Assembly (NCBI GenBank): GCA_021462855.1 | Contig: JAJTXQ010000039.1 | Location: 1-64,000 of the forward strand | DNA length: 64,000 bases | Direction: 5' to 3' | From: Dehalococcoidia bacterium | Lineage (GTDB): Bacteria > Chloroflexota > Dehalococcoidia > DSTF01 > JACRBR01 | The notes under the pieces: model-generated | What the model was told of the DNA's origin: nothing | The model's input: the letters and a program-made list of their open reading frames with translations, nothing else | Databases searched by the model: none | Shown here: piece after piece, positions 1 through 16,176 of the stretch | Layout of the letters: the number at the start of each line of letters is the position of its first letter | Position numbering within the stretch: the first letter of the stretch is position 1 | Position numbers and translations under genes: made by a program

Positions 1-146
1 TCGAACACGAACGGCTGTACACCGCAGGGGTGCATGCGGCATGATGCGCCAAGAAACCAACTGTCCGGAAAACCGGGGTAAGCTCAATCATCCAGAAGCT
101 CGAACAGAAGCTTGGACGGGAGATCTCCGGTGACGATAAGTTTCTA

Positions 147-596
147 TTGGCCGTGCTGCTGGAGCCGGGTGAACTCACTGTTCCGCAGGTCGTGCCGATC
201 GAGCCGTGGGCGTCGCTTCACGTCAACACACCGGGGAACCTACCGATTGAGCGTGACACGCAAGCGGCGTTCGAGGCGGCCATCGCGCCGTTGAAGGCGA
301 GGGCGATCCGGTTCACCTACTTCAAGCCCGACGCCTTCTCACCGGCATTTCGTATCGAAGTGAAAGATGGGCTCGCTGACGCGGAGTTGGATTCGTTCTG
401 TTCGACCATCAGCCGCCAGATCACAGGCCCGTTTGTGCGCGAGCCGTATCCCCAATACCTCGCGGATGTGATGGCGAAGTCGGTGGGTCTCGGACTGAGT
501 GCATTGCAGACTGCCGTACAGGTGGGACTAAGCGGGATCGGGCGACCAGAGATGGCAGAATTGCTCATCCACTCGTATCGAACGGAAGGCGTGTAA
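147..596 (+). CDS. small protein, first gene of a HerA/methylase operon; start uncertain
   Basis: The 149 residues from a TTG codon at 147 match no family I recognise. The same frame is open back to position 45 and looks coding (it reads a helical, charged stretch including IIQKLEQKLGREISGDDKF), but it has no ATG or GTG there, so the true start is TTG147, or an unusual codon, or lies beyond a frame disruption near position 44. The stop is 3 nt before the ATG of the HerA-like gene, so the two are almost certainly cotranscribed. By position it may be a partner or specificity subunit of that ATPase; this is inference from context only. Confidence 0.55.
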   Translation: MAVLLEPGELTVPQVVPIEPWASLHVNTPGNLPIERDTQAAFEAAIAPLKARAIRFTYFKPDAFSPAFRIEVKDGLADAELDSFCSTISRQITGPFVREPYPQYLADVMAKSVGLGLSALQTAVQVGLSGIGRPEMAELLIHSYRTEGV

Positions 597-599
597 GTC

Positions 600-2345
600 A
601 TGGACGACGTTGGTGTTGTAGGTTCACCGAGCACTACTACGAAGGTGACGGTAGACATTCTTGAGGATGCGACTGGAGCGCCGCTGCACGGACAACTTGT
701 CGCGCTTGCGCACCCATTTGAGCAGAAGTGCCTGATCGCACTGGGAACCGTGACGGAGATCCGAACATCGAACCGCTGGCACGAGGATCCGAACATGCGC
801 GGCGTCCTGAAACGGCACGGATCATTGCCGCATTTGTCCAACGTCGGCGACGTTCGTACAGCGGATGTGCTGGTGCAAGCCGCGTACCTCGCGCAGTCGT
901 CGGATCCAGCGGAAGGCGATCCACCGATAGAGAGCGGCGCGTCTTTGAGCATGTCGCCGACCACGGGCGCACAGGTCACGCGAGTAACGAACGACTTTCT
1001 AGAGCAATTGCTTCGGAGACACGAGGCTGAGATCGTGTTTCTCGGACACATCTACCGGAGCGATGCCGTTCGATTGCCAATGACCATACGTCACTTCGGC
1101 CCGGCGAACGTTGGCGGTGCGGGTGAGGCGTATCACACGGGCATCTTCGGCATGACAGGCAGTGGGAAGTCAGCCTTCGCGTCATATCTGTTGGCGGCGC
1201 AACTTCGACACACCGAAATGGCCGTCGTGATCATGGATCCACAAGGGCAGTTCACGAGTGAAGAAGGGTTGCCCTTCTCGTTACAAGAGTGGGCCGAATC
1301 GATTGGGCGTCCGGTGCGCCTATACTCAATATCATCCGACCTGCGGTTGGATCAGGAAGCCGACCTACTGGGAGACCTCCTGGGACTCACGCGATTCTTC
1401 GCCGACCTGCTCACCATCAAGGCCGAACCAAATAGGGAATCGGCAGTGGCAGAGTTCACGAGGATCCTCCGGGCCACTACGAACTGGTCTCAGATTGCCG
1501 CCGACACATTGCTTCAACAGCTAACGAGCACGCTTGCCAATGACGCACAGGCGATCCAACGGATCTACTCGTCCCCGCAAGCGCAGGCGCGTTTGGTGAA
1601 TGCTCTCTCTGCGATCACACCGGGCACGAACGAGTTCACGATAGCGGCGGAGATATTCCGACCCTTGCACTCGCTGTTTGCGCCTACCAATCCGCAAGGT
1701 GGAAACAGGCGCTCCATTCACTCAGTCCTGCAAGAACTGCTTGCTACGGGGGACGGCGCACGCCCATTACTCATCATCGACTTCTCAAGTGCACAGGCGG
1801 GCGCGACTGACATCCTGAACTCGACGCCTGTAAAGGCGGCGATTCTCCGGCGCGTGTGCTCACGGCTCAACCTCCGTGCCGAGGAACAGTTCAGGCAAGG
1901 GCACGGGAATCTGAACACGTTGGTTGTGTTCGATGAGGCACAACGGTTTGCGGCAGAATCGCCCGAAGATGAGGAATCGGAGATCCTTGCAAACAAGCTC
2001 GTTGACTATGTTCGTACCACGCGCAAGTACGGGCTCGGATGGGCGTTCATCACGCAAGAGGTTAGTTCGCTTCGGCGCGGGATCTACTCACAGTTGCGCG
2101 TCCGTTGTTTCGGGTATGGCCTGACTTCGGGAACCGAGTTGCAGCGCCTCCGTGATACTATCGGCGATCCAGCCGCCCTCGATCTCTATCGCTCGTTCGT
2201 TGACCCTGCCGCCATACAACCCTCCGAGTACCCGTTTATGCTCACGGGGCCAATCTCCCCGTTGTCCTTCACCGGCGTACCGGTGTTTCTTTCCGTGTAC
2301 ACGGATTTCGACACGTTCAGGGCGGACAACAACCTCGCGACATGA
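600..2345 (+). CDS. HerA/DUF87-type ATPase
   Basis: 581-aa ATPase of the HerA/FtsK superfamily. The Walker A motif GMTGSGKS lies near residue 184, followed by a beta-strand VVIMDPQGQ. A Walker B-like VVFDEAQRF lies near residue 445, and TRKYGLGWAFITQE a little further on resembles the conserved region after Walker B in DUF87 proteins. HerA-type enzymes form hexameric rings that translocate DNA and usually work with a nuclease. The stop codon overlaps the ATG of the following methyltransferase gene (ATGA at 2342-2345), which implies translational coupling. Such ATPases recur in anti-phage systems beside nucleases or methylases. The substrate and the function within this operon are inferred, not shown. 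Confidence 0.85.
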   Translation: MDDVGVVGSPSTTTKVTVDILEDATGAPLHGQLVALAHPFEQKCLIALGTVTEIRTSNRWHEDPNMRGVLKRHGSLPHLSNVGDVRTADVLVQAAYLAQSSDPAEGDPPIESGASLSMSPTTGAQVTRVTNDFLEQLLRRHEAEIVFLGHIYRSDAVRLPMTIRHFGPANVGGAGEAYHTGIFGMTGSGKSAFASYLLAAQLRHTEMAVVIMDPQGQFTSEEGLPFSLQEWAESIGRPVRLYSISSDLRLDQEADLLGDLLGLTRFFADLLTIKAEPNRESAVAEFTRILRATTNWSQIAADTLLQQLTSTLANDAQAIQRIYSSPQAQARLVNALSAITPGTNEFTIAAEIFRPLHSLFAPTNPQGGNRRSIHSVLQELLATGDGARPLLIIDFSSAQAGATDILNSTPVKAAILRRVCSRLNLRAEEQFRQGHGNLNTLVVFDEAQRFAAESPEDEESEILANKLVDYVRTTRKYGLGWAFITQEVSSLRRGIYSQLRVRCFGYGLTSGTELQRLRDTIGDPAALDLYRSFVDPAAIQPSEYPFMLTGPISPLSFTGVPVFLSVYTDFDTFRADNNLAT

Positions 2346-5300
2346 CGAGCCGGACGACGCCAACGACTGCCGATCTTCGCCGCGCGATCGGGCGCGGCAC
2401 TAGCGCAGGCGTCCGTTCTGGTCGTCCAGAGGCAGTGCTGCGCGAGCATGTTCAGCCTGTGCTGGAAGCGTTGCTCATCGCGCGCGGCGCTAGGGCTATC
2501 GGGCGTAATGAGTCGCGGCTGCTTGTTCCGTCTCCTCAGGAAGCCGAGTCACTTGATGCGCCGCTCTCAACAAACGGCCGCGCCGACGCCATCTACAACC
2601 GGTTCGTGATCGAGTTCGAGCCGCCGGGCTCGATGAGGGCTTCGGTGCAGCACAGCGCCACCAAGCACGCGGTTGGGCAGGTGCAGCAATACCTAAGAGG
2701 GATGAGCGAACGCGACTCGATCCCCCTTGAACGCCTCGCTGGGTGTGCCTTCGACGGAACGTGGATCTCCTATGTGACCTGGGAGCGGGGCGGTTGGCGC
2801 GTGACTCCGCCGAAGCGGGTTGACGAAGCCGCTCTGTCCGCGCTGGTCGATACGCTCGAATCGCTCTCAACCGGTCGGGGACTCACCGTCGAGAACCTGT
2901 ATGAGGACTTTGGCCGCGAGAGCGCTATCGCCGGTACGGCAGTTCGGGCCTTACATGCGGTGCTTACGTCTCCCGAGGTCTCAGGTCGGACAATCGCCAT
3001 GTTCGATCAGTGGCGGATCGATCTCGGCAATGCATCCGGGCCTTTCGCAGCGGGTGATCTAGGCGAGTGGCAGACGCTCTGTGCTGACCTCGGCGTAACG
3101 CCTGATCCGGAACTGGCGGAGCATGTCTTGTTCAGCGTGCAAACTTACTTTGCTCTGGTAGCGAAGCTCGTAGCACTGATCATCCTCGAAGGAGCGACCG
3201 GGCATCGCTTGGTGAGCGAGTTGATCCCGCGTGAGGGAATCTGGGAAGGCTATGGTCGTCTCGAATCAGGGCGGTTGACCGCAGCGACGAAGGCGGTGAA
3301 TGCGGTTGAGCCCGGCGTGTTCTCTTGGTACGTGACCGAGCAGACTGATGCATTGAGCACGGCTCTATCGGACATGGCTCGGCTGGCTGGCGAGTACTCC
3401 GCAGAGGTTGTCGAGGTGACGCCGCTCGTAGCGCGAGACGTACTCAAAGATCTGTACCAACGCCTGTTGCCGAGAACGATTCGCCATCGGCTAGGCGAGT
3501 ACTACACCCCCGATTGGCTCGCGCAGCGTGTCGTCAATCAAGTGACGGGATCTCCTGAGACCATACCCGTAACCAAGCGTGTACTCGATCCCGCGTGCGG
3601 TTCGGGCACGTTCCTTGTGGAAGTGATTTCGCGGATGGTGGCGACCGCTTCGGAGCAAGATCCACAGCGCACGCTTGAGCGGGTTCTCGGCAACGTCGTA
3701 GGATTCGACCTCAGTCCGCTCGCCGTGCAAGCCGCGAAGGTGAACTATCTATTGGCGCTGTCGCCGTTGCTGCGACACGCCGATCATCCGATCTTCCTGC
3801 CGGTTTACCTAGCTGACTCTGTTTCTCCTCCGCGACGTGGTGGATTGCTCGACGGTGACGTGTACGTGTTCGAGACGAGTGAGGGAGACTGGCGCGTGCC
3901 GGTGCCGCTTGCGGAAGCGCAGTATCTACCGGCGCTGGGGGATATTCTCGGTGAGGCCATTGAACATCGCCGCTCTGTCGCCGATGTGCGACGACGCATC
4001 GTCGCGAGCTTGCCCGTGAACGCCGACGACGCGGATGTGCTGGATGCCGCCTCCTCGCTGTTCGAGAAGCTCCGTGACCTTCACGCGGCAGATCGTAACG
4101 GCATGTGGTGGCATCTCCTCACCAATGCCTTCGCGCCGACACTTCAACCGAAGTTCGACTACGTTGTTGGTAATCCTCCATGGGTTTCATGGGAGACTCT
4201 GCCGGAGCCTTATCGGCGAGCGAACGATGAGCAGCTCCGAGGATATGGCCTTCACCCTGACGTGCCGCCTGACCGCCGACAAGCGTCAACACATGCGCCG
4301 CTGGATCTCTCGATGCTGTTCGTTGCACGTTGTATGGATCGATTCCTGACCGAGAGCGGGCGCCTGGGCTTCGTCATAACCGCTACGGTGTTTCAGTCTG
4401 AGATCGGAGGACGTGGATTCCGCCGCCGCCGCCTCCCGAACGGGCGATATCGGTTCATTCAAATTGATGATCTATCGGGCCTTCAAGTGTTCGAGGGCGC
4501 AACAAACATGAGCGCCGTCCTCGTAGCGGATCGCGGACGCACACAGAATCGGATACCAGTTACGCGGTGGACTGGCGGGGAAACAAGAACCATCCCAACA
4601 AACAGGGAGCTTGCTGAGGCGGTGGCCCTAACCGTTCGGCGCAACCTATATGCAGAACCTGCCGACCCCGCCGACGAAGCGTCTCCTTTGCTCGTGATGC
4701 CAAGAGCCGGGCTGGAGGCGAGCAGGCCGCTTCGGCGTAGGTCGTACTACCTCGATCTCATTCGGAAGGGCATCGATACCCGCGGGGCGAACGGAATCTA
4801 CTTCGTCAGCGCTGGCCCGCAGGACGGGCGATACGTGACGATAGAGAACGATCCCTCAGAGGGCCGCAACAAGAAGGTTCCCCAGTTGCGCGGTGAGGTG
4901 GAACATTCCGCGATTCGTCAACTCCTACGAGGCTCCAACGTGGGCAGAATGTCGGCGGCTCCGTCGGGCTCGTTGCTTCTGTTCCACGATGAGCGCCACG
5001 TCAGCCAACCAATGAGCGAAGGAGAAGCTCAGAGAGCCATCCCGAAGGCACTTGCCTACGCTCGGCAGTTCGAAACCCTACTCAAGGCACGGAAGAAGTT
5101 CCGCAACTTCGATCCGAGTGGGGACGACTGGCTCGGCATCTACTCGGTGACGTCAGCAGCAATCGCGGAGCACAAGGTTGTGGTGCGCGAGATCGCCGGC
5201 GGCATGATTGCCGCGCCCGTTCACTCAAGCAATATCATCCCTGATCACAAGCTCTACGTGATTCCGTGCCGCTCGGCGCGTGAAGCTGATCTTCTAGCAC

Positions 5301-5560
5301 GCGTGCTCAACTCCCGCGTTGTTGACTTTGTGCTGCGAGCCTTCTCGGTCAGCACGTCGATCACCGGCTCGTTCCTTCGGTACATCGGCGTGCAGGATCT
5401 CGCAGCCATCCCCGATAACCGTGACGAAGAAACGCTGTTAGCCTCTGCGCTCGGCCTTACGCTGGAGCAGTACCGAACGCTCGACCGCATCGCGGCGTCG
5501 GAGTTGCCGGAGCTTGCAGAGCTAGAGCCCGTGGCCCAAGTGGACGATTCTGGCGACTAG
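2342..5560 (+). CDS. Type IIG/PglX-like N6-adenine DNA methyltransferase with nuclease-like N-terminus
   Basis: 1072-aa protein. Residues about 25-125 resemble a PD-(D/E)xK nuclease core: D82 in GRADAIY, then E91-F-E93 in VIEFEPPGS, and Q113 on a following helix; the usual lysine is replaced by glutamate, as in the ExE arrangement of BamHI. The methyltransferase core has SAM motif I DPACGSGTF (D416) and the catalytic NPPW motif (N611-W614), typical of N6-adenine methylases of the Eco57I/PglX type. The remaining 450 residues would hold target recognition. It could be a single-chain restriction-modification enzyme or the methylase of a larger defence system with the upstream HerA ATPase. It is the last gene of the operon and converges on the XRE gene 7 nt away. 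Confidence 0.85.
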   Translation: MTSRTTPTTADLRRAIGRGTSAGVRSGRPEAVLREHVQPVLEALLIARGARAIGRNESRLLVPSPQEAESLDAPLSTNGRADAIYNRFVIEFEPPGSMRASVQHSATKHAVGQVQQYLRGMSERDSIPLERLAGCAFDGTWISYVTWERGGWRVTPPKRVDEAALSALVDTLESLSTGRGLTVENLYEDFGRESAIAGTAVRALHAVLTSPEVSGRTIAMFDQWRIDLGNASGPFAAGDLGEWQTLCADLGVTPDPELAEHVLFSVQTYFALVAKLVALIILEGATGHRLVSELIPREGIWEGYGRLESGRLTAATKAVNAVEPGVFSWYVTEQTDALSTALSDMARLAGEYSAEVVEVTPLVARDVLKDLYQRLLPRTIRHRLGEYYTPDWLAQRVVNQVTGSPETIPVTKRVLDPACGSGTFLVEVISRMVATASEQDPQRTLERVLGNVVGFDLSPLAVQAAKVNYLLALSPLLRHADHPIFLPVYLADSVSPPRRGGLLDGDVYVFETSEGDWRVPVPLAEAQYLPALGDILGEAIEHRRSVADVRRRIVASLPVNADDADVLDAASSLFEKLRDLHAADRNGMWWHLLTNAFAPTLQPKFDYVVGNPPWVSWETLPEPYRRANDEQLRGYGLHPDVPPDRRQASTHAPLDLSMLFVARCMDRFLTESGRLGFVITATVFQSEIGGRGFRRRRLPNGRYRFIQIDDLSGLQVFEGATNMSAVLVADRGRTQNRIPVTRWTGGETRTIPTNRELAEAVALTVRRNLYAEPADPADEASPLLVMPRAGLEASRPLRRRSYYLDLIRKGIDTRGANGIYFVSAGPQDGRYVTIENDPSEGRNKKVPQLRGEVEHSAIRQLLRGSNVGRMSAAPSGSLLLFHDERHVSQPMSEGEAQRAIPKALAYARQFETLLKARKKFRNFDPSGDDWLGIYSVTSAAIAEHKVVVREIAGGMIAAPVHSSNIIPDHKLYVIPCRSAREADLLARVLNSRVVDFVLRAFSVSTSITGSFLRYIGVQDLAAIPDNRDEETLLASALGLTLEQYRTLDRIAASELPELAELEPVAQVDDSGD

Positions 5561-5567
5561 GACGACG

Positions 5568-6515
5568 CTACTGAGACATGAGCCGCTTTAGCGGCGGTGT
5601 CAGTTCCTCTGCTACGCGATGTTCGATGCGTTCCTGTGCTTCATGCCGAAACTGTCGCAGCGCAACTTGGAGACGTGGCCGCACCTTGTTCAGTACGTCT
5701 CCGCCCTTGCGCTGAACGACGCTGCTGAGCGTGACCAGCACCAAGAGTCGTATCGGCTTCTCCGCGGTCAGATCGTCGGTGAGTCCTTCGACGATCGAGT
5801 GACCGGCCCAATCATTACCGATCGACGTGTAGGCTTGTTCGGCTGATTGTGCAACGTTCTCACCATGCCACGTCAGGTAGTAGGCGAGGTTCCACTTATT
5901 GAGCAGATCATCGTCCATGAGACGCTCGATCATCTCGTCGTGAAGGAGCCTGCGATCTCCAACGAGAGCAGCAGCAATCTCAATCGCCCGCCTAACAAGG
6001 AGACTCTCTCGTGGGTAGATATCCCTTATGAGGGTTTGCGCCTCGGTACGCCGCATCTGGATCAAGTAGTAGGCGGCTTGTTGCCGAATCGACTCGGATT
6101 GCCAACCTTCGCCGGTCGCGCTTTGGAACAGATCAAGGAGCGACTCGCTCGCTGACTGTGCCTCAGCCTCATACAAGTACTCGTCTGTCGTCAGGCCGTA
6201 CATCAAATGCTTTGCCCTGCCCCGATCGAGTGGAAGGCGGAACAGTTCGTGCAGCCTCGACGGTTCCTCAACGATTGTGAGCAACGCTTCATCGGCCTCC
6301 GCCGCTTCCGCGAGTTGTTGGGCTCGTTCTCGGCTGAAACCGACGGCGCGAAGAATGTCGCTGACCTTGCCGGGCAGCGTTACGGGCCGCACGCCCTGCT
6401 CAATGGCTTGGATGTGTGCTTCGGAGACTCCAGAGCGGCGCGCGAGTTCCTTCTGTGTGAGTCCGCTCTTGATGCGCCAACTTCGGAGAAGCGTACCCGC
6501 GAGATTCCGTTTCAC
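5568..6515 (-). CDS. XRE-family HTH regulator with long helical C-terminal domain
   Basis: 315 aa. Residues about 8-60 form a canonical Cro/C1-type helix-turn-helix (LTQKELARRSGVSEAHIQAIEQG). The remaining 240 residues are predicted mostly helical and carry repeated helical hairpins (IRQQAAYYLIQM, VRRAIEIAAALVGD), suggesting a HEAT/TPR-like sensing or dimerisation domain. It converges with the HerA-methylase operon and is transcribed away from a set of tandem direct repeats just upstream of its start. The likely role is transcriptional control of itself and perhaps the neighbouring defence-like operon, like C proteins of restriction systems; that role is inferred. The ATG at 6515 is the first in frame before the HTH. 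Confidence 0.8.
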   Translation of the reverse strand: MKRNLAGTLLRSWRIKSGLTQKELARRSGVSEAHIQAIEQGVRPVTLPGKVSDILRAVGFSRERAQQLAEAAEADEALLTIVEEPSRLHELFRLPLDRGRAKHLMYGLTTDEYLYEAEAQSASESLLDLFQSATGEGWQSESIRQQAAYYLIQMRRTEAQTLIRDIYPRESLLVRRAIEIAAALVGDRRLLHDEMIERLMDDDLLNKWNLAYYLTWHGENVAQSAEQAYTSIGNDWAGHSIVEGLTDDLTAEKPIRLLVLVTLSSVVQRKGGDVLNKVRPRLQVALRQFRHEAQERIEHRVAEELTPPLKRLMSQ

Positions 6516-7153: not shown

Positions 7154-7276
7154 ATGATCACGCCTAACTATCGGCCTCGCGCCGGAGCGAAGAAGTCTCA
7201 CCAATGGCCCCTTATCGGGGCCATTTCGTTTATACGGCGAGTCTTGGGTGTAAACGCCAAGAGGCCCGCCCCATGA
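7154..7276 (+). CDS. possible 40-aa leader peptide
   Basis: ATG at 7154, preceded by GGAGGA at good spacing. It encodes a basic 40-aa peptide whose TGA overlaps the ATG of the next gene (ATGA at 7273-7276). A terminator-like hairpin lies inside the reading frame (7203-7225), so it could be a leader peptide coupled to the downstream gene; it could equally be a chance frame over an attenuator. Confidence 0.3.
   Translation: MITPNYRPRAGAKKSHQWPLIGAISFIRRVLGVNAKRPAP
7203..7231 (+). terminator. intrinsic terminator or attenuator
   Basis: A perfect 9-bp stem AATGGCCCC/GGGGCCATT with a 5-nt loop is followed by TTCGTTT. It sits 48 nt before the ATG of the 405-aa gene and inside the possible leader ORF, so it could attenuate that gene or end transcription from upstream. 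Confidence 0.5.
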
Positions 7277-8490
7277 ATGCGCATCGACAACAGCGGCGAT
7301 TCGCACGAGAGCTGGTTCGGCAGTCAGATAGTCTAAGCCGCTCCCCGCGCTGGCCACGCAACGCGGTCGTTGTATTCGATGATGCACGCGCCCTAGTCGA
7401 GGGCGTGCAAGATGCTGCTCGCGAGAGTCCGCGTGCGGGCAGAGGATTCGTGAAGGTCAGAGTAGTTGCCAGCCGTCCGCTTGATCCGGTCACGCGTCAG
7501 CCGTGTGGCCTACCGTCAGTGAGTGGTTGGAGGCCCGATCTTGACGTGTTTGCTCCAGACTTCGGCGGTGGTGATCCCGAGTATGGCTGCGAGTGGCCGT
7601 TCGGCGCGCCGTTCGTGACCCACCAAGAACGCCAGCGTACGCTCGATGAACTTGTTCGGCGTGGATTCCTGCGTCTCCCTTCGGATGTGTGTGGACTCGC
7701 CTGCGAATCATTTGTTCGGTGCCGACTATGGCGCACGCTACATGCACCCATTCGCATCCTAGATTGGCCTCGACGAGATGCGTTCGATGCTTCGATCACA
7801 GTCCTGACAACGTGGCCTCCCTTCGAGGAGTGGACAACCTGTCGCGGTCGGGTGAAGGAACTCGCTCAGAGTGCGCGTAGCTGGTTCGGCGATGATGCCG
7901 CCTCGATTGTCGTTCGGACGATTCGGCGACGCGTCACCAGTCTCAGCGACGTGCTCGAAGTGCGGAAGGTTGTGGCCCAAGTCCTCAGACGTTGGGGTTA
8001 CGCGAAGTTGCGCACACCAACGCACTCTGCCCTCTCAACCTCAGTCCGCGACGTGATCAGCATCATCGAAGCTGCATATCTCGGAGCGGCGACGGGGAAG
8101 GCACCCTACCTGATCGCTCGGCGAGAGGCCGTCCTGCCCAAGGCGCGGAGGGGCGACGCGAAACTCGTAGGCCACACGCTGATCCCGCTCGGTGTTGCGG
8201 ATGCATGGTGCGCCAAGCTTGAACCTCTGGGCGCATCGCGGCTTGATTGGAAGAAGGCGCGGAAGATACTCAATGCGGTCTCCCCTAAGCCGAAACGAAA
8301 TCCTGCACCACCCTTCGCCGTTGGCGTCCGCGCTGCCGTCGCGGACATGCTCACCAATGGCAAGACGATCTCGATCAAGGCATTGGCGCAGCGAATGGCT
8401 ATGACCGAACCGGCGCTTAAGAAGGCATTGGCGCGTGCGTCGCTCAATCTGGGCAAGCTGCAAGCAGAGTTCGCCGGTCAGTCCCCGTAG
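7273..8490 (+). CDS. hypothetical protein (405 aa)
   Basis: I do not recognise this protein. The chosen ATG at 7273 overlaps the stop of the short upstream frame; a longer frame back to 7204 runs through the terminator hairpin and is unlikely. The N-terminal half contains several Cys and Trp residues (DVCGLACESFVRCRLW). The C-terminal 60 residues read like a helix-turn-helix (SIKALAQRMAMTEPALKKAL), so a DNA-binding role in the mobile element is possible. There are no membrane segments. Codon usage resembles other island genes rather than the GC-richer chromosome to the right. Confidence 0.6.
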   Translation: MNAHRQQRRFARELVRQSDSLSRSPRWPRNAVVVFDDARALVEGVQDAARESPRAGRGFVKVRVVASRPLDPVTRQPCGLPSVSGWRPDLDVFAPDFGGGDPEYGCEWPFGAPFVTHQERQRTLDELVRRGFLRLPSDVCGLACESFVRCRLWRTLHAPIRILDWPRRDAFDASITVLTTWPPFEEWTTCRGRVKELAQSARSWFGDDAASIVVRTIRRRVTSLSDVLEVRKVVAQVLRRWGYAKLRTPTHSALSTSVRDVISIIEAAYLGAATGKAPYLIARREAVLPKARRGDAKLVGHTLIPLGVADAWCAKLEPLGASRLDWKKARKILNAVSPKPKRNPAPPFAVGVRAAVADMLTNGKTISIKALAQRMAMTEPALKKALARASLNLGKLQAEFAGQSP

Positions 8491-9246: not shown

Positions 9247-9361
9247 GTCCCGCTGCCATCGCCGTACATGCATATCCGCCCGCAATGGGCCTGTGTAACG
9301 GCCCGGCTGAGTCCGAGTTTGATTATGAGAATGGCCCTTCTCGGTGAAACGGAGGCACTCA

Positions 9362-10366
9362 ATGACTGTCCCAACGGCCAGCCCGGAACCGCTCCCGTCC
9401 GTTGCGCTGTACGGCGTACCGGCGTCTCAGAGGCCCGCGCTCGTTTACCTTGCGCGGCTCTCAGGAGGCTCCCGGCGCACCATGCGGGGCGCGCTAGACC
9501 TGATCGCCCGCGAACTCATGGACGGCAACCCCGGCGAGCCGTGTGACGCCGAAACGCTCAATTGGGGCGCTCTGCGCTACACGCATACGGCAGCGATCCG
9601 GCGTCGGCTCATTGAGAGGGAATACGCGCCCGCCACGGCGAACAAGATGCTCGCGGCGCTCCGGGGCGTGCTCCGTGAGGCATGGAAGCTCGGACACATG
9701 ACCGCAGAGGACTTTCACCGAGCCGTGGAGCTTGAGCCGGTGCGGGGGACGGTAGAGCCGCGCGGGCGCGCCCTCAATCAGGTCGAAGTAATCGCGCTGT
9801 TCAAGGAGTGCGAGTCCGACGATACGGCCAGCGGCGTACGCGATGCGGCTATGATCGCGCTTCTCTACGGTGCTGGGCTGCGACGGTCGGAGCTTGTGGG
9901 GCTAAACGTCAGCGACTACGACGCGCCTTCCGGCGCGTTGAGAGTTCGGGGAAAGGGACGGAAGGCACGCACAGTGTATGTGACACACGGAAGCCGAGAA
10001 GCTCTTGAAGCGTGGCTCTCGCACGCGCGCATCGGGATAGATGCAAGCACGAAACCGCTGTTCGTCCCCATCGACAAAGCTGGGCGGCTGCAACCGCGAC
10101 GTATGACGGATCAGGCGCTCTACTACGCACTCCGACGACGCGCAAAGGCCGCAGGTATCAAGGAGTTCTCACCCCACGATCTCCGGCGGACGTTCATCGG
10201 CGACATGCTCGACGCGGGCGCAGACATTAGCGCCGTTCAGCAACTCGCCGGACACTCGAACATCAGCACGACAGCTAGGTACGACAGGCGCGGCGAGCGG
10301 GCGAAGAAGAAGGCGATGAGCCTGTTACTTGTACCCTACACGAGCAAACAATCTCGACGACACTAG
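9362..10366 (+). CDS. tyrosine recombinase / integrase (XerC/D-like)
   Basis: 334 aa from the ATG at 9362, which has ACGGAGG upstream at good spacing. An N-terminal SAM-like core-binding domain (about residues 20-125) precedes the catalytic domain. The full catalytic set is visible: Arg in AGLRRSEL, Lys in GKGRKART, His-x-x-Arg in HDLRRT, His in LAGHSN and the nucleophile Tyr in TARYDRR. The enzyme therefore looks intact and could excise or insert island segments. Related but truncated C-terminal fragments occur at about 12.55 and 14.23 kb. Its stop shares a CTAG with the stop of the convergent kwaB gene. Confidence 0.93.
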   Translation: MTVPTASPEPLPSVALYGVPASQRPALVYLARLSGGSRRTMRGALDLIARELMDGNPGEPCDAETLNWGALRYTHTAAIRRRLIEREYAPATANKMLAALRGVLREAWKLGHMTAEDFHRAVELEPVRGTVEPRGRALNQVEVIALFKECESDDTASGVRDAAMIALLYGAGLRRSELVGLNVSDYDAPSGALRVRGKGRKARTVYVTHGSREALEAWLSHARIGIDASTKPLFVPIDKAGRLQPRRMTDQALYYALRRRAKAAGIKEFSPHDLRRTFIGDMLDAGADISAVQQLAGHSNISTTARYDRRGERAKKKAMSLLLVPYTSKQSRRH

Positions 10367-11307
10367 ACCGTACTCTTGGAGTTCGCCTCATACCGCAATG
10401 TCGTGAGGTTCGACGTAAGGTAGTCGTCGTCAAGCAGTTTGAGGATCGTCCAACGCTTCTCGCGATCCTGCTCGAACACGAGTTCTTCGCGGCCCGAACC
10501 TGGATCGCGACGAATCTCCAATGGCAGATCGAAATCACGCACATGGTTCTTGATCGCCTCCATCGTCAACGTTGCGAGGTAGGGCTTCCCTGCCACGCGA
10601 GCGGCCTTCGCCACCATCTGTATCTGCCCGGCGACGGCGCGGCGGAACTCCTCCTCGTTAGCGATTGGCACACTCGCGACAAGTTGATCGATAGCTTGAT
10701 CGGCGCGAGCGCGTAGTTCCTCTAAGTAGTCGAAGATGCGTTCAAACTGCGTGACGTTGGCGATGAACAAGTACCCATCCCACGCGATGCAATCTATGTC
10801 GCGATCAAACAGGAACGCGCGATCAGTGATCTTTGTGTAGGTGCCCCCGGCGAAGATTGCTCCAATGCCGCCTCGGTCTAGTTCGAACCGGGCGGTTGTG
10901 TGCCGGAAGAAGATGGCACGCTCACCGGCTCGGCCTCCGAGCGCGAGGGCGTAGAAACGGAGACCTCGGAAGTAGTGATCTTCTTCCACGAGGAGCGGAA
11001 GGTTACCGACTCGTTCAAACGAGTCCACAATGCCACGCACTCGATCGTGATCGTCGTTCAACGGCAGGTACGTAAGTTCGTGCGAGTCGGGCTTGTACCC
11101 GGCGTCGTAAGCTCTCAGGTCTCGCTCGGCGAATCGATCGTACGCGTTCTTCGCGATGGCCACGAACTCCGATGCCAAGTCCTCCGTGATGTTGGCGCGG
11201 CGCATGTCGAAAGTCAGATTCTCGGCACGCGCCGCCAACGCCACCGAAGCTCTGATCTGCCGTCCTAAGAGCGCCCCCAGCGAAGCGAAGGACTCCTCTA
11301 CTGTCAT
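10363..11307 (-). CDS. kwaB: Kiwa anti-phage protein KwaB (DUF4868)
   Basis: 314 aa from an ATG at 11307 that overlaps the kwaA stop (ATGA) and follows GGAGAAGGGG; an upstream in-frame start at 11325 is less likely. Length and the C-terminal signature (KLLDDDYLTSNLTTLRYEANSK) match the DUF4868 family to which KwaB belongs. In Kiwa, the membrane protein KwaA senses infection and KwaB is the DNA-binding effector that blocks phage replication and late transcription; this is knowledge of the E. coli system. Gene order kwaA-kwaB, coupling and sizes all fit. Confidence 0.85.
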   Translation of the reverse strand: MTVEESFASLGALLGRQIRASVALAARAENLTFDMRRANITEDLASEFVAIAKNAYDRFAERDLRAYDAGYKPDSHELTYLPLNDDHDRVRGIVDSFERVGNLPLLVEEDHYFRGLRFYALALGGRAGERAIFFRHTTARFELDRGGIGAIFAGGTYTKITDRAFLFDRDIDCIAWDGYLFIANVTQFERIFDYLEELRARADQAIDQLVASVPIANEEEFRRAVAGQIQMVAKAARVAGKPYLATLTMEAIKNHVRDFDLPLEIRRDPGSGREELVFEQDREKRWTILKLLDDDYLTSNLTTLRYEANSKSTV

Positions 11308-11819
11308 GACCCCTTCTCCAACCATAGATAGTCGCCGAGCGTCGCGACCTCAATGTTCTCGCCCGGCCTGACGTAGTGTCGTTTCGTAAGCATCATCCTG
11401 GGCAGTTTGTCCGCGCCGGAAACTTCGAAGATGTGGTACCCCATGAAGTTGAGAAGCGGATTGAAGTAGATCAGGTTCGAGTTGACGTACAAGACACCCA
11501 GCACGATGAACAACACGACGAGGGCAATGAGATCGGCACGGCTGCCGGTATCCACGTCCAAGAACGGGATGATGTATGTGACGATGTAGGCCATCGCGTC
11601 GCCCGTTCGTGACTCAACGTTATCGATTCTCTCGAACTGCCCCGCCAACCGCCGCGCTTGCCGCTCGTACGTCAATAGTCCGGCCACACCTAACACACCG
11701 ACGGCGATCGCGACGACCGCGATCGTACGCTCGTCCTCCCAATATCGGATCGCGAAGATCACGAACAGCGGGGTGTAGGAGCTAAGGAACAGCACCCAGC
11801 GGACGAATCGGGCTGGCAC
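11304..11819 (-). CDS. kwaA: Kiwa membrane protein KwaA
   Basis: 171-aa membrane protein with about four hydrophobic segments (near residues 8-26, 31-50, 75-90 and 96-116), followed by the sequence VNSNLIYFNPLLNFMGY and a soluble C-terminal tail. Four membrane spans and a gene coupled by ATGA to a DUF4868 gene are the hallmarks of KwaA. The GTG start has GAGGGGGT about 9 nt upstream. In characterised Kiwa systems KwaA forms the inner-membrane sensor that recruits KwaB. The family match is by architecture and neighbour rather than by a catalytic motif. Confidence 0.78.
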   Translation of the reverse strand: MPARFVRWVLFLSSYTPLFVIFAIRYWEDERTIAVVAIAVGVLGVAGLLTYERQARRLAGQFERIDNVESRTGDAMAYIVTYIIPFLDVDTGSRADLIALVVLFIVLGVLYVNSNLIYFNPLLNFMGYHIFEVSGADKLPRMMLTKRHYVRPGENIEVATLGDYLWLEKGS

Positions 11820-12314: not shown

Positions 12315-12469
12315 GGCCGACTCTGGCGCTCGGTCTGGGCCACAGTCTATTGACTCTACGCACGTTGCCTCCGGCGCTTCAAGGGCTGCGCCGGGAACAC
12401 GGGTACCACCGTCATGTGCCAGCGGCGTATCCGAGGATCGTCAGGCTCAGAAGTGCGGTTGCTGGAAGT

Positions 12470-12606
12470 CCGAATCCCTTCGGGGTCGCCACTAGCACAC
12501 TTCGACTCGCCCGGTTCGAACGCCGAAACCGGGCGAACGCTTCCCTCGCAGACCTTCAGTTCAGTCCCATTGACGTGAGGCGCACCTTCATCAGTGACCT
12601 CCTCGA
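12470..12606 (+). repeat. island repeat, copy A (tRNA-3'-end-like core plus inverted repeat)
   Basis: The core at 12470-12492 (CCGAATCCCTTCGGGG then TCGCCAC) resembles the T-arm/acceptor 3' end of a tRNA. It is followed by inverted arms TCGCCCGGTTCG (12507-12518) and AACCGGGCGA (12527-12536). Block 12530-12606 matches copy B at 74 of 77 positions. I interpret it as an attachment-site remnant. Confidence 0.6.
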
Positions 12607-14125: not shown

Positions 14126-14189
14126 GTGCTGACAACCGCCCCGAATCCCTTCGGGGTCGCCACAACCGCTATCTGAATCGCCCGGTTCG
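14126..14189 (+). repeat. island repeat, copy B
   Basis: This 64-bp stretch is identical to 16113-16176 (copy C). It contains the hairpin CCCCGAA-TCCC-TTCGGGG at 14139-14156 and ends in CGCCCGGTTCG, whose complementary arm GAACCGGGCGA follows at 14197-14207. From 14201 on, 77 bp match copy A instead, so B looks like a junction joining the C-type left part to the A-type right part. Confidence 0.65.
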
Positions 14190-14200
14190 TCGCCCTGAAC

Positions 14201-14434
14201 CGGGCGAACACTTCCCTCGCAAGCCTTCAGTTCAGTCCCATTGACGTGAGGCGCACCTTCATCAGTGACCTCCTCGACGCTGGCGCCGACATTTCGACGG
14301 TGCAGGGTCTTGCCGGTCACGCGAACGTGCAGACGACCGTGCGCTACGACCGACGCGGCGAACAGGCGAAGCAGAAGGCGTCCGCGCTGCTCCACGTCCC
14401 CTACATCGACGATAAGACTAGGGGCACTGTATGA
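14201..14434 (+). pseudogene. C-terminal fragment of a tyrosine recombinase (copy B)
   Basis: The frame contains [36 protein letters not shown] and a complete C-terminus ([16 protein letters not shown]), lacking everything before the HxxR box. The HxxR histidine is isoleucine, as in copy A. A GTG at 14246 could start a 62-aa peptide, and its TGA overlaps the ATG of the next small membrane gene (ATGA), so translation of the relic might still feed that gene. Confidence 0.7.
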
Positions 14435-16112: not shown

Positions 16113-16176
16113 GTGCTGACAACCGCCCCGAATCCCTTCGGGGTCGCCACAACCGCTATCTGAATCGCCCGGTTCG
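16113..16176 (+). repeat. island repeat, copy C
   Basis: Identical over 64 bp to 14126-14189, including the hairpin CCCCGAA-TCCC-TTCGGGG at 16126-16143 and the terminal CGCCCGGTTCG. After that point it diverges completely from copies A and B; the second inverted-repeat arm is absent. The break in similarity therefore falls at GGTTCG, a plausible crossover point. Confidence 0.65.

What the first reader, a model, noticed from the sequence alone, without database searches (positions are those of the whole stretch)
147..5560. Three-gene HerA-methyltransferase operon with nuclease-like domain, possible defence system
A small protein of no recognisable family, a HerA/DUF87 ATPase and a 1072-aa methyltransferase with a PD-(D/E)xK-like N-terminus are packed with 3-nt and ATGA junctions and lie in an island that also holds Kiwa. 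The only published class I know with an ATPase and a methylase together is Hma (helicase, methylase, ATPase), but no helicase is visible here; one could lie left of the window. If not, this is a different system in which HerA supplies translocation to a single-chain restriction-modification enzyme.
Basis: partly seen in the sequence, partly recalled or inferred. Interest (0 to 1): 0.72.

Follow-up and report, generated by a model that had tools for sequence, protein, structure and literature searches.

The report
IS-broken druA-nurA-herA-restriction enzyme operon
What looked like a three-gene operon is the right-hand part of a four-gene mobile operon (DruA, the nuclease NurA, the DNA pump HerA and a one-piece restriction-methylation enzyme), probably for attacking foreign DNA or possibly for exporting DNA, whose nuclease gene has been cut in two by a jumping gene in this organism.

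Summary
HerA (600-2345) and a type IIG restriction-methyltransferase (2342-5560) are real and tightly coupled. The '149-aa protein of no family' is not a gene: it is the 3' part of a NurA nuclease gene. The window begins at a contig end; the 5' part of nurA lies on contig C13, and both ends carry termini of a repeated insertion sequence (at least three copies). Upstream on C13 lie druA, a serine recombinase and tRNA-Asp; no helicase. The intact operon druA-nurA-herA-IIG occurs in a Chloroflexi MAG and a phage-like contig. druA-nurA-herA without the IIG recurs: all 14 readable loci of this HerA in the phylum sample have nurA beside it, 11 also druA. Neighbours include Kiwa, a CBASS cyclase, type III R-M and phage genes. 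The IIG N-terminus models as a BpuSI/DrdV-like nuclease (D...ExE). The trio NurA + HerA + IIG is not unprecedented: the Thermus ICETh1 operon (Tth111II/TthHB27I, NurA-like, TdtA) drives DNA donation. DruA, gene order and phage carriage differ. Best reading: a mobile anti-invader translocase-nuclease module with an R-M partner, probably inactive here because nurA is split. DNA donation is the main rival. New variant of a known kind; function untested.

The parts
1..86 (.). Terminus of a multi-copy insertion sequence (24-base end at 63-86); the contig breaks inside it
   Evidence: Two terminus forms occur at six contig ends of the genome, three each, with identical inner 62 bases and unrelated outer sequence
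87..89 (.). ATC, likely 3-bp target duplication
   Evidence: C13 flank ends ...GCCATC, C33 flank starts ATCATCCAG
87..596 (+). 3' part of nurA (the ORF called at 147 with TTG start); lacks the conserved D, E and D residues, which are encoded on C13:84-701 (-)
   Evidence: family:
600..2345 (+). herA, DUF87 hexameric-translocase family ATPase, 581 aa; Walker A GMTGSGKS (about 1149-1172), DEA (about 1932-1940), RK of the arginine-finger region (about 2022-2027)
   Evidence: invariant residues
2342..5560 (+). Type IIG restriction endonuclease-methyltransferase, 1072 aa
   Evidence: PADLOC PDLC03630 700 bits; Pfam N6_Mtase and Eco57I
2357..2872 (+). PD-(D/E)xK-type nuclease domain of the IIG (residues 6-177), with D82 (2585-2587), E91 (2612-2614), E93 (2618-2620)
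   Evidence: AlphaFold2 model pLDDT 80, BpuSI Z 10.1, DrdV Z 9.8; motif
3587..3616 (+). Methyltransferase motif I DPACGSGTFL
   Evidence: sequence and alignment
4172..4183 (+). Methyltransferase motif IV NPPW, typical of N6-adenine enzymes
   Evidence: sequence and alignment
12468..12550 (-). att-like copy of the recombinase 3' end next to tRNA-Asp, 82% identical to C13
14142..14226 (-). att-like copy, 97.6% identical to C13
16129..16176 (-). att-like copy, 48/48 identical to C13

Best explanation
The feature is the downstream part of a mobile four-gene operon, druA-nurA-herA-IIG, in an island at tRNA-Asp that also carries Kiwa. Most likely it is an anti-invader system: HerA forms a ring that pumps double-stranded DNA into NurA, which degrades it; the IIG enzyme methylates the host's own sites and cuts unmethylated invader DNA, giving HerA-NurA free ends to load on; DruA helps to aim or regulate the complex. 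In this organism an insertion sequence has split nurA, so the full system is probably inactive, reduced at best to HerA plus the IIG enzyme. Shown here: gene content, order, the split, family membership, and recurrence of the operon with and without the IIG. Inferred: the anti-invader role, the coupling of IIG cutting to HerA-NurA, and any role of DruA.
For: Split nurA. NurA family. Four-gene operon in three places: window/C13, L010, L082. Core nurA-herA in 14 of 14 readable loci, with druA in 11. DruA is the Druantia family. Defence neighbours: Kiwa, CBASS cyclase and an IIG-like MTase in L059, type III R-M in L111, GajA/OLD-like ATPase in L064. Phage cargo position in L082 and L099. IIG nuclease domain; operon-linked IIGs are one clade and keep the N-terminal part while the methylase/specificity part is swapped in L082. 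Published: HerA with other nucleases is anti-phage (PMC11291478), archaeal HerA-NurA degrades dsDNA (PMC12977600).
Against: The only tested NurA-HerA-IIG operon (ICETh1) exports DNA and no defence role is reported in the passages I read. Most core operons lack the IIG, and no other sampled phylum locus has it. DruA does not co-diverge with NurA-HerA. Several core loci sit among housekeeping-like genes. No experiment.
Confidence: 0.45

Rival explanations
1. DNA-donation module of an integrative element, as in Thermus ICETh1: the IIG enzyme nicks or cuts donor DNA, NurA trims the ends and the HerA-like ring pumps DNA out of the cell.
For: Same trio in one operon in ICETh1, each of the three needed for donation, on a tRNA-integrated element of 14.9 kb without classical conjugation genes; IIG homologues also in tdtA-like clusters of two other bacteria. 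Here: recombinase, tRNA-Asp and att-like repeats. The top NCBIfam hit of HerA is CedD, a DNA-exchange ATPase, though far below its cut-off.
Against: Most loci of the core have no IIG and no recombinase visible; L082 and L099 lie inside phage gene sets, an odd place for a donation machine; DruA is absent from ICETh1 as described; gene order differs; HerA could not be compared with TdtA.
Confidence: 0.2
2. Two independent neighbours: a druA-nurA-herA module and a stand-alone type IIG R-M enzyme that happened to land behind it in a defence island.
For: The core usually lacks the IIG; IIG relatives stand alone on plasmids and phage-like contigs.
Against: ATGA overlap in the window and also 4-nt overlaps in L010 and L082; the three linked IIGs are one clade and were not found unlinked at that similarity in about 700 genomes; N-terminal part conserved while the rest is swapped, though linkage to herA could cause that too.
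Confidence: 0.25
3. DNA end processing for repair, replication or recombination of mobile elements, with no defence role.
For: NurA-HerA is an end-processing pair in archaea (published work). The same HerA subfamily lies on large actinobacterial plasmids near a NurA-like gene and an SMC-type ATPase gene and on a haloarchaeal plasmid with nurA.
Against: Pairing with DruA and repeatedly with R-M or other defence genes; patchy distribution (24 of 301 genomes).
Confidence: 0.1

Closest known systems
ICETh1 DNA-donation operon of Thermus thermophilus HB27 (type IIG Tth111II/TthHB27I TTC1877, NurA-like TTC1878, TdtA TTC1879, methylase TTC1880; PMC5365140, PMC7767461)
   Same: Type IIG enzyme, NurA-like nuclease and HerA-like ATPase in one operon; recombinase and tRNA-end repeats; element of similar size
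   Different: IIG lies upstream of nurA there and downstream of herA here; druA is not reported there; no separate methylase gene follows here; tyrosine integrase there, serine recombinase at the left end here; sequence relation of the ATPases not tested
Housekeeping NurA-HerA
   Same: NurA fold family with conserved D, E, D; HerA/DUF87 ATPase; adjacent genes
   Different: Divergent subfamily (profile match only), mobile context, DruA in front; searched relatives of the own family and order lack housekeeping NurA at the cut-off used
Druantia
   Same: DruA (PF14236, 395.7 bits)
   Different: No DruE-type helicase or other Dru proteins in the scanned flanks
Hma (helicase, methylase, ATPase)
   Same: An ATPase and a DNA methylase together
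   Different: Hma has a helicase and an m5C methylase (PMC8565338); here no helicase and an N6-adenine enzyme
HerA-DUF4297 and HerA-Sir2 anti-phage systems
   Same: HerA ring coupled to an effector enzyme; solved HerAs of these kinds are among the PDB matches of the profile
   Different: Effector here is NurA, with DruA and a type IIG enzyme
Type IIG restriction enzymes BpuSI, DrdV
   Same: Nuclease domain fold, adenine methylase and specificity region in one chain
   Different: ExE in place of ExK, and an operon with nurA and herA

Membership tests
Type IIG restriction-modification | Nuclease, methylase and specificity region in one chain | tested here: met
   PADLOC PDLC03630 700 bits over residues 78-1015; nuclease domain matches BpuSI Z 10.1
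Type IIG restriction-modification | Intact catalytic residues | tested here: inconclusive
   DPACGSGTFL and NPPW present; nuclease motif D82-E91-E93 with Glu instead of Lys; activity unknown
NurA-HerA pair | NurA domain | tested here: met
   Relatives over the Pfam cut-off, profile match to housekeeping NurAs; the window fragment alone scores nothing
NurA-HerA pair | Intact nurA next to herA | tested here: not met
   nurA is split by an insertion sequence in this genome; intact in relatives
Hma | Helicase HmaA | tested here: not met
   None among scanned neighbours left (C13) or right
Hma | m5C methylase HmaB | tested here: not met
   N6_Mtase/Eco57I families, NPPW motif
Druantia | DruA in type I | tested here: met
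   PF14236 395.7 bits on C13
Druantia | DruE helicase | tested here: not met
   No helicase in the scanned flanks
ICETh1-type DNA donation | IIG, NurA and HerA-like ATPase in one operon on a tRNA-integrated element | tested here: met
ICETh1-type DNA donation | Gene order integrase-IIG-nurA-tdtA-methylase | tested here: not met
   Here recombinase-druA-nurA-herA-IIG, no methylase gene after it
ICETh1-type DNA donation | ATPase orthologous to TdtA | not testable with these tools
   No TdtA sequence reachable; Thermus plasmid IIG hits were unrelated
ICETh1-type DNA donation | Promotes DNA donation | not testable with these tools
   Needs mating assays

The most novel reading that the evidence does not exclude
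druA-nurA-herA is an undescribed, recurrent anti-invader system in which DruA guides a HerA-NurA DNA shredder and restriction-modification enzymes (type IIG, type III) are interchangeable self/non-self partners; it would be related to the machine that Thermus uses for DNA donation, so defence and DNA transfer would share one engine.
Probability: 0.3. Interest if true: 0.78.

Novelty: new variant of a known kind. Interest (0 to 1): 0.5.

Why it matters
It gives DruA, a protein of uncertain role known from Druantia, a recurrent setting directly in front of a NurA-HerA nuclease-translocase pair. I found no paper in the open library that describes this cluster, and PADLOC gave no match to the NurA protein. 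It also ties these loci to the only experimentally studied NurA-HerA-IIG operon, a DNA-donation machine, so one can test whether the same engine serves defence, DNA export or both. For the given genome it is a caution: the striking small ORF is the stump of an interrupted gene at a contig edge.

Tried and rejected
Small novel protein: rejected. Hidden helicase to the left: not found among scanned genes. Hma and Druantia membership: rejected on missing helicase and, for Hma, methylase type. AlphaFold2 of NurA: pLDDT 54, not used. Foldseek alone gave no match under 0.001 for the IIG N-terminus; the VIA-align second look put BpuSI and DrdV on top, with mitoribosomal chains close behind at Z 8-9, so the fold call also rests on the motif and the IIG family score. 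NurA profile against PDB sequences: nothing relevant. HerA against phage records: no match. NurA and HerA alignments were too diverse for viral scans; single HerA proteins returned only contigs already known. Co-divergence of DruA with NurA-HerA: not seen. Thermus plasmid IIG hits as stand-ins for ICETh1: unrelated contexts. Papers holding both DUF4338 and NurA: none. One malformed report was sent before this one.

Full report
1. What is in the sequence. The window is bases 1-64000 of contig C33 of a 76-contig genome, so its left edge is a contig end. ORFs 147-596, 600-2345 and 2342-5560 are there, with a 3-nt gap before herA and an ATGA overlap (2342-2345) between herA and the methylase gene. 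HerA has DUF87 (48.5 bits). The 1072-aa protein matches the PADLOC type IIG restriction-methyltransferase model over residues 78-1015 with 700 bits. The 149-aa ORF matches nothing credible in Pfam, PADLOC or NCBIfam.

2. The small protein is a stump. A relative of HerA in a Chloroflexi MAG (L010) has a complete 371-aa gene directly upstream of herA. Its C-terminal half is 65% identical to the window ORF, whose frame extends back past the TTG. Searching the own genome with that 371-aa protein finds residues 202-371 in the window and residues 4-206 on contig C13. At the break both contigs carry a similar 24-base terminus. The two terminus forms occur at six contig ends of the genome, three each, with identical inner sequence and unrelated outer sequence. 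The outer flanks end ...GCCATC and begin ATCATCCAG, consistent with a 3-bp duplication, and with one ATC counted once the spacing across the site has the same number of residues as in L010. I read this as insertion of a multi-copy element, probably of the IS3 kind (inference from the termini and the short duplication); the element's own interior was not seen.

3. It is a NurA. Family members from related loci pass the Pfam NurA cut-off of 21 (L099 32.1, L103 32.3, L059 21.8, L071 21.4, L111 36.3 bits); L010, L082 and the own halves do not reach it. The family profile aligns with housekeeping NurAs of the own class over 257 columns (hhalign 93.8%, E 1.8e-7; a few of the 13 template ORFs may be mis-extracted, which should weaken rather than create the match). 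Nearly invariant D70, E131 and D146 (L010 numbering) lie in the half that is on C13.

4. The operon has a fourth gene and sits in a tRNA island. On C13, upstream of nurA, lies druA (PF14236, 395.7 bits), then a divergent serine recombinase whose 3' end overlaps tRNA-Asp. Copies of that recombinase/tRNA end occur in the window at 14142-14226 (97.6%), 16129-16176 (100%) and 12468-12550 (82%). Operon and Kiwa (10363-11819) thus lie between att-like repeats. Beyond the tRNA are ordinary chromosomal genes; no helicase is among the scanned neighbours. That C13 and C33 are neighbours is inferred from the split gene and the shared repeat.

5. Recurrence. The same four genes in the same order occur in L010 and in L082/L102. 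In L082 they lie between a minor tail protein and phage primase and exonuclease genes; in L099 druA-nurA-herA lies between a phage-type integrase and phage replication genes. A HerA profile found this subfamily in 24 of 301 genomes of the own phylum. Of the 15 strongest loci including the window, 14 can be read to the left; all 14 have nurA adjacent (in the window genome as the split gene) and 11 have a DruA-domain gene upstream of it. Several are from the same genus, so these are not independent events. In a sample of the phylum of L011 two of 296 genomes had it. None of the other phylum loci has the IIG. Neighbours are often defensive: a CBASS cyclase and an IIG-like MTase (L059), UvrD-PD-(D/E)xK then type III Mod and Res (L111), a GajA/OLD-like ATPase (L064). 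HerA and NurA distances agree (r 0.95) while DruA's do not (r 0.04-0.07), so DruA seems to be exchanged or to evolve differently.

6. The IIG enzyme. Residues 1-345 model well (pLDDT 80). The best solved-structure matches are the nuclease domains of BpuSI (Z 10.1) and DrdV (Z 9.8). The motif is D82, E91, E93, a Glu where the plasmid homologues have Lys. The Glu also occurs in unlinked relatives, and BamHI is an active enzyme with such a motif (own knowledge). The three operon-linked enzymes form one clade (100/100). Between window and L082, residues 1-390 are 59% identical but 391-1072 only 33%, whereas window and L010 are even (53 and 55%): the nuclease and linker part was kept and the methylase and specificity part replaced. 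Searches of about 700 genomes with this N-terminus found only weaker matches, most of them starting at model position 78 or later, and none with nurA or herA in the small flanks held. Physical linkage to herA could also preserve the N-terminal part, so this suggests but does not prove a functional contact.

7. What is known. Hma needs a helicase and an m5C methylase (PMC8565338). HerA with DUF4297 is anti-phage (PMC11291478), and archaeal HerA-NurA degrades dsDNA (PMC12977600). Two surveys of HerA/FtsK systems do not mention NurA (PMC10853773, PMC12839542). The decisive precedent is ICETh1 of Thermus thermophilus: integrase, type IIG enzyme, NurA-like nuclease and TdtA (HerA-like) in an element at tRNA-Ile; loss of nurA-like cost 4-5 orders of magnitude of DNA donation, loss of the IIG about 3, loss of tdtA all of it; IIG homologues lie in tdtA-like clusters of two other bacteria (PMC5365140, PMC7767461). 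So the trio is not new. DruA, the order, phage carriage and the frequent IIG-free form are the new points.

8. Verdict. The anatomy is secure. The function is not: I favour anti-invader action by HerA-NurA with the IIG as self/non-self and cutting partner, because of DruA, the defence neighbours and the phage cargo position, and hold DNA donation as the main rival because it is the only experimentally shown use of the trio. In this genome nurA is split, so the complete system is probably not active.

Noticed in passing
window 10363-11819 (-): Kiwa kwaA-kwaB pair in the same tRNA-Asp island as the operon, next to a tyrosine recombinase at 9344-10366.
   Followed up: partly
window 12468-12550, 14142-14226, 16129-16176; C13:3880-3956: Tandem att-like repeats of a tRNA-Asp/recombinase end, suggesting several integration events in a row.
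   Followed up: partly
contigs C9, C13, C33, C38, C40, C76 ends of G000: Six contig ends share two terminus forms of one insertion sequence, so at least three copies fragment this assembly.
   Followed up: yes
L010 14952-17723 (-); L111 10594-13461 (+): A UvrD helicase fused to a PD-(D/E)xK nuclease lies next to druA-nurA-herA in two unrelated loci.
   Followed up: partly
L013, L014, L015 (Dietzia, Corynebacterium, Rhodococcus plasmids): The same HerA subfamily with a NurA-like gene a few kb away and an SMC-type ATPase gene in a conserved plasmid cluster.
   Followed up: partly
L011 2-1240: At a contig edge the nurA frame continues into residues that resemble the DruA N-terminus, perhaps a druA deletion that fused the two genes.
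   Followed up: no
druA in 12 loci: DruA distances do not follow those of NurA and HerA, which hints at exchange of druA between operons.
   Followed up: partly
window 5568-6515 (-) and 7204-8490 (+): A 315-aa HTH-domain protein convergent with the IIG gene and a 428-aa protein of no known family lie between the operon and Kiwa.
   Followed up: no
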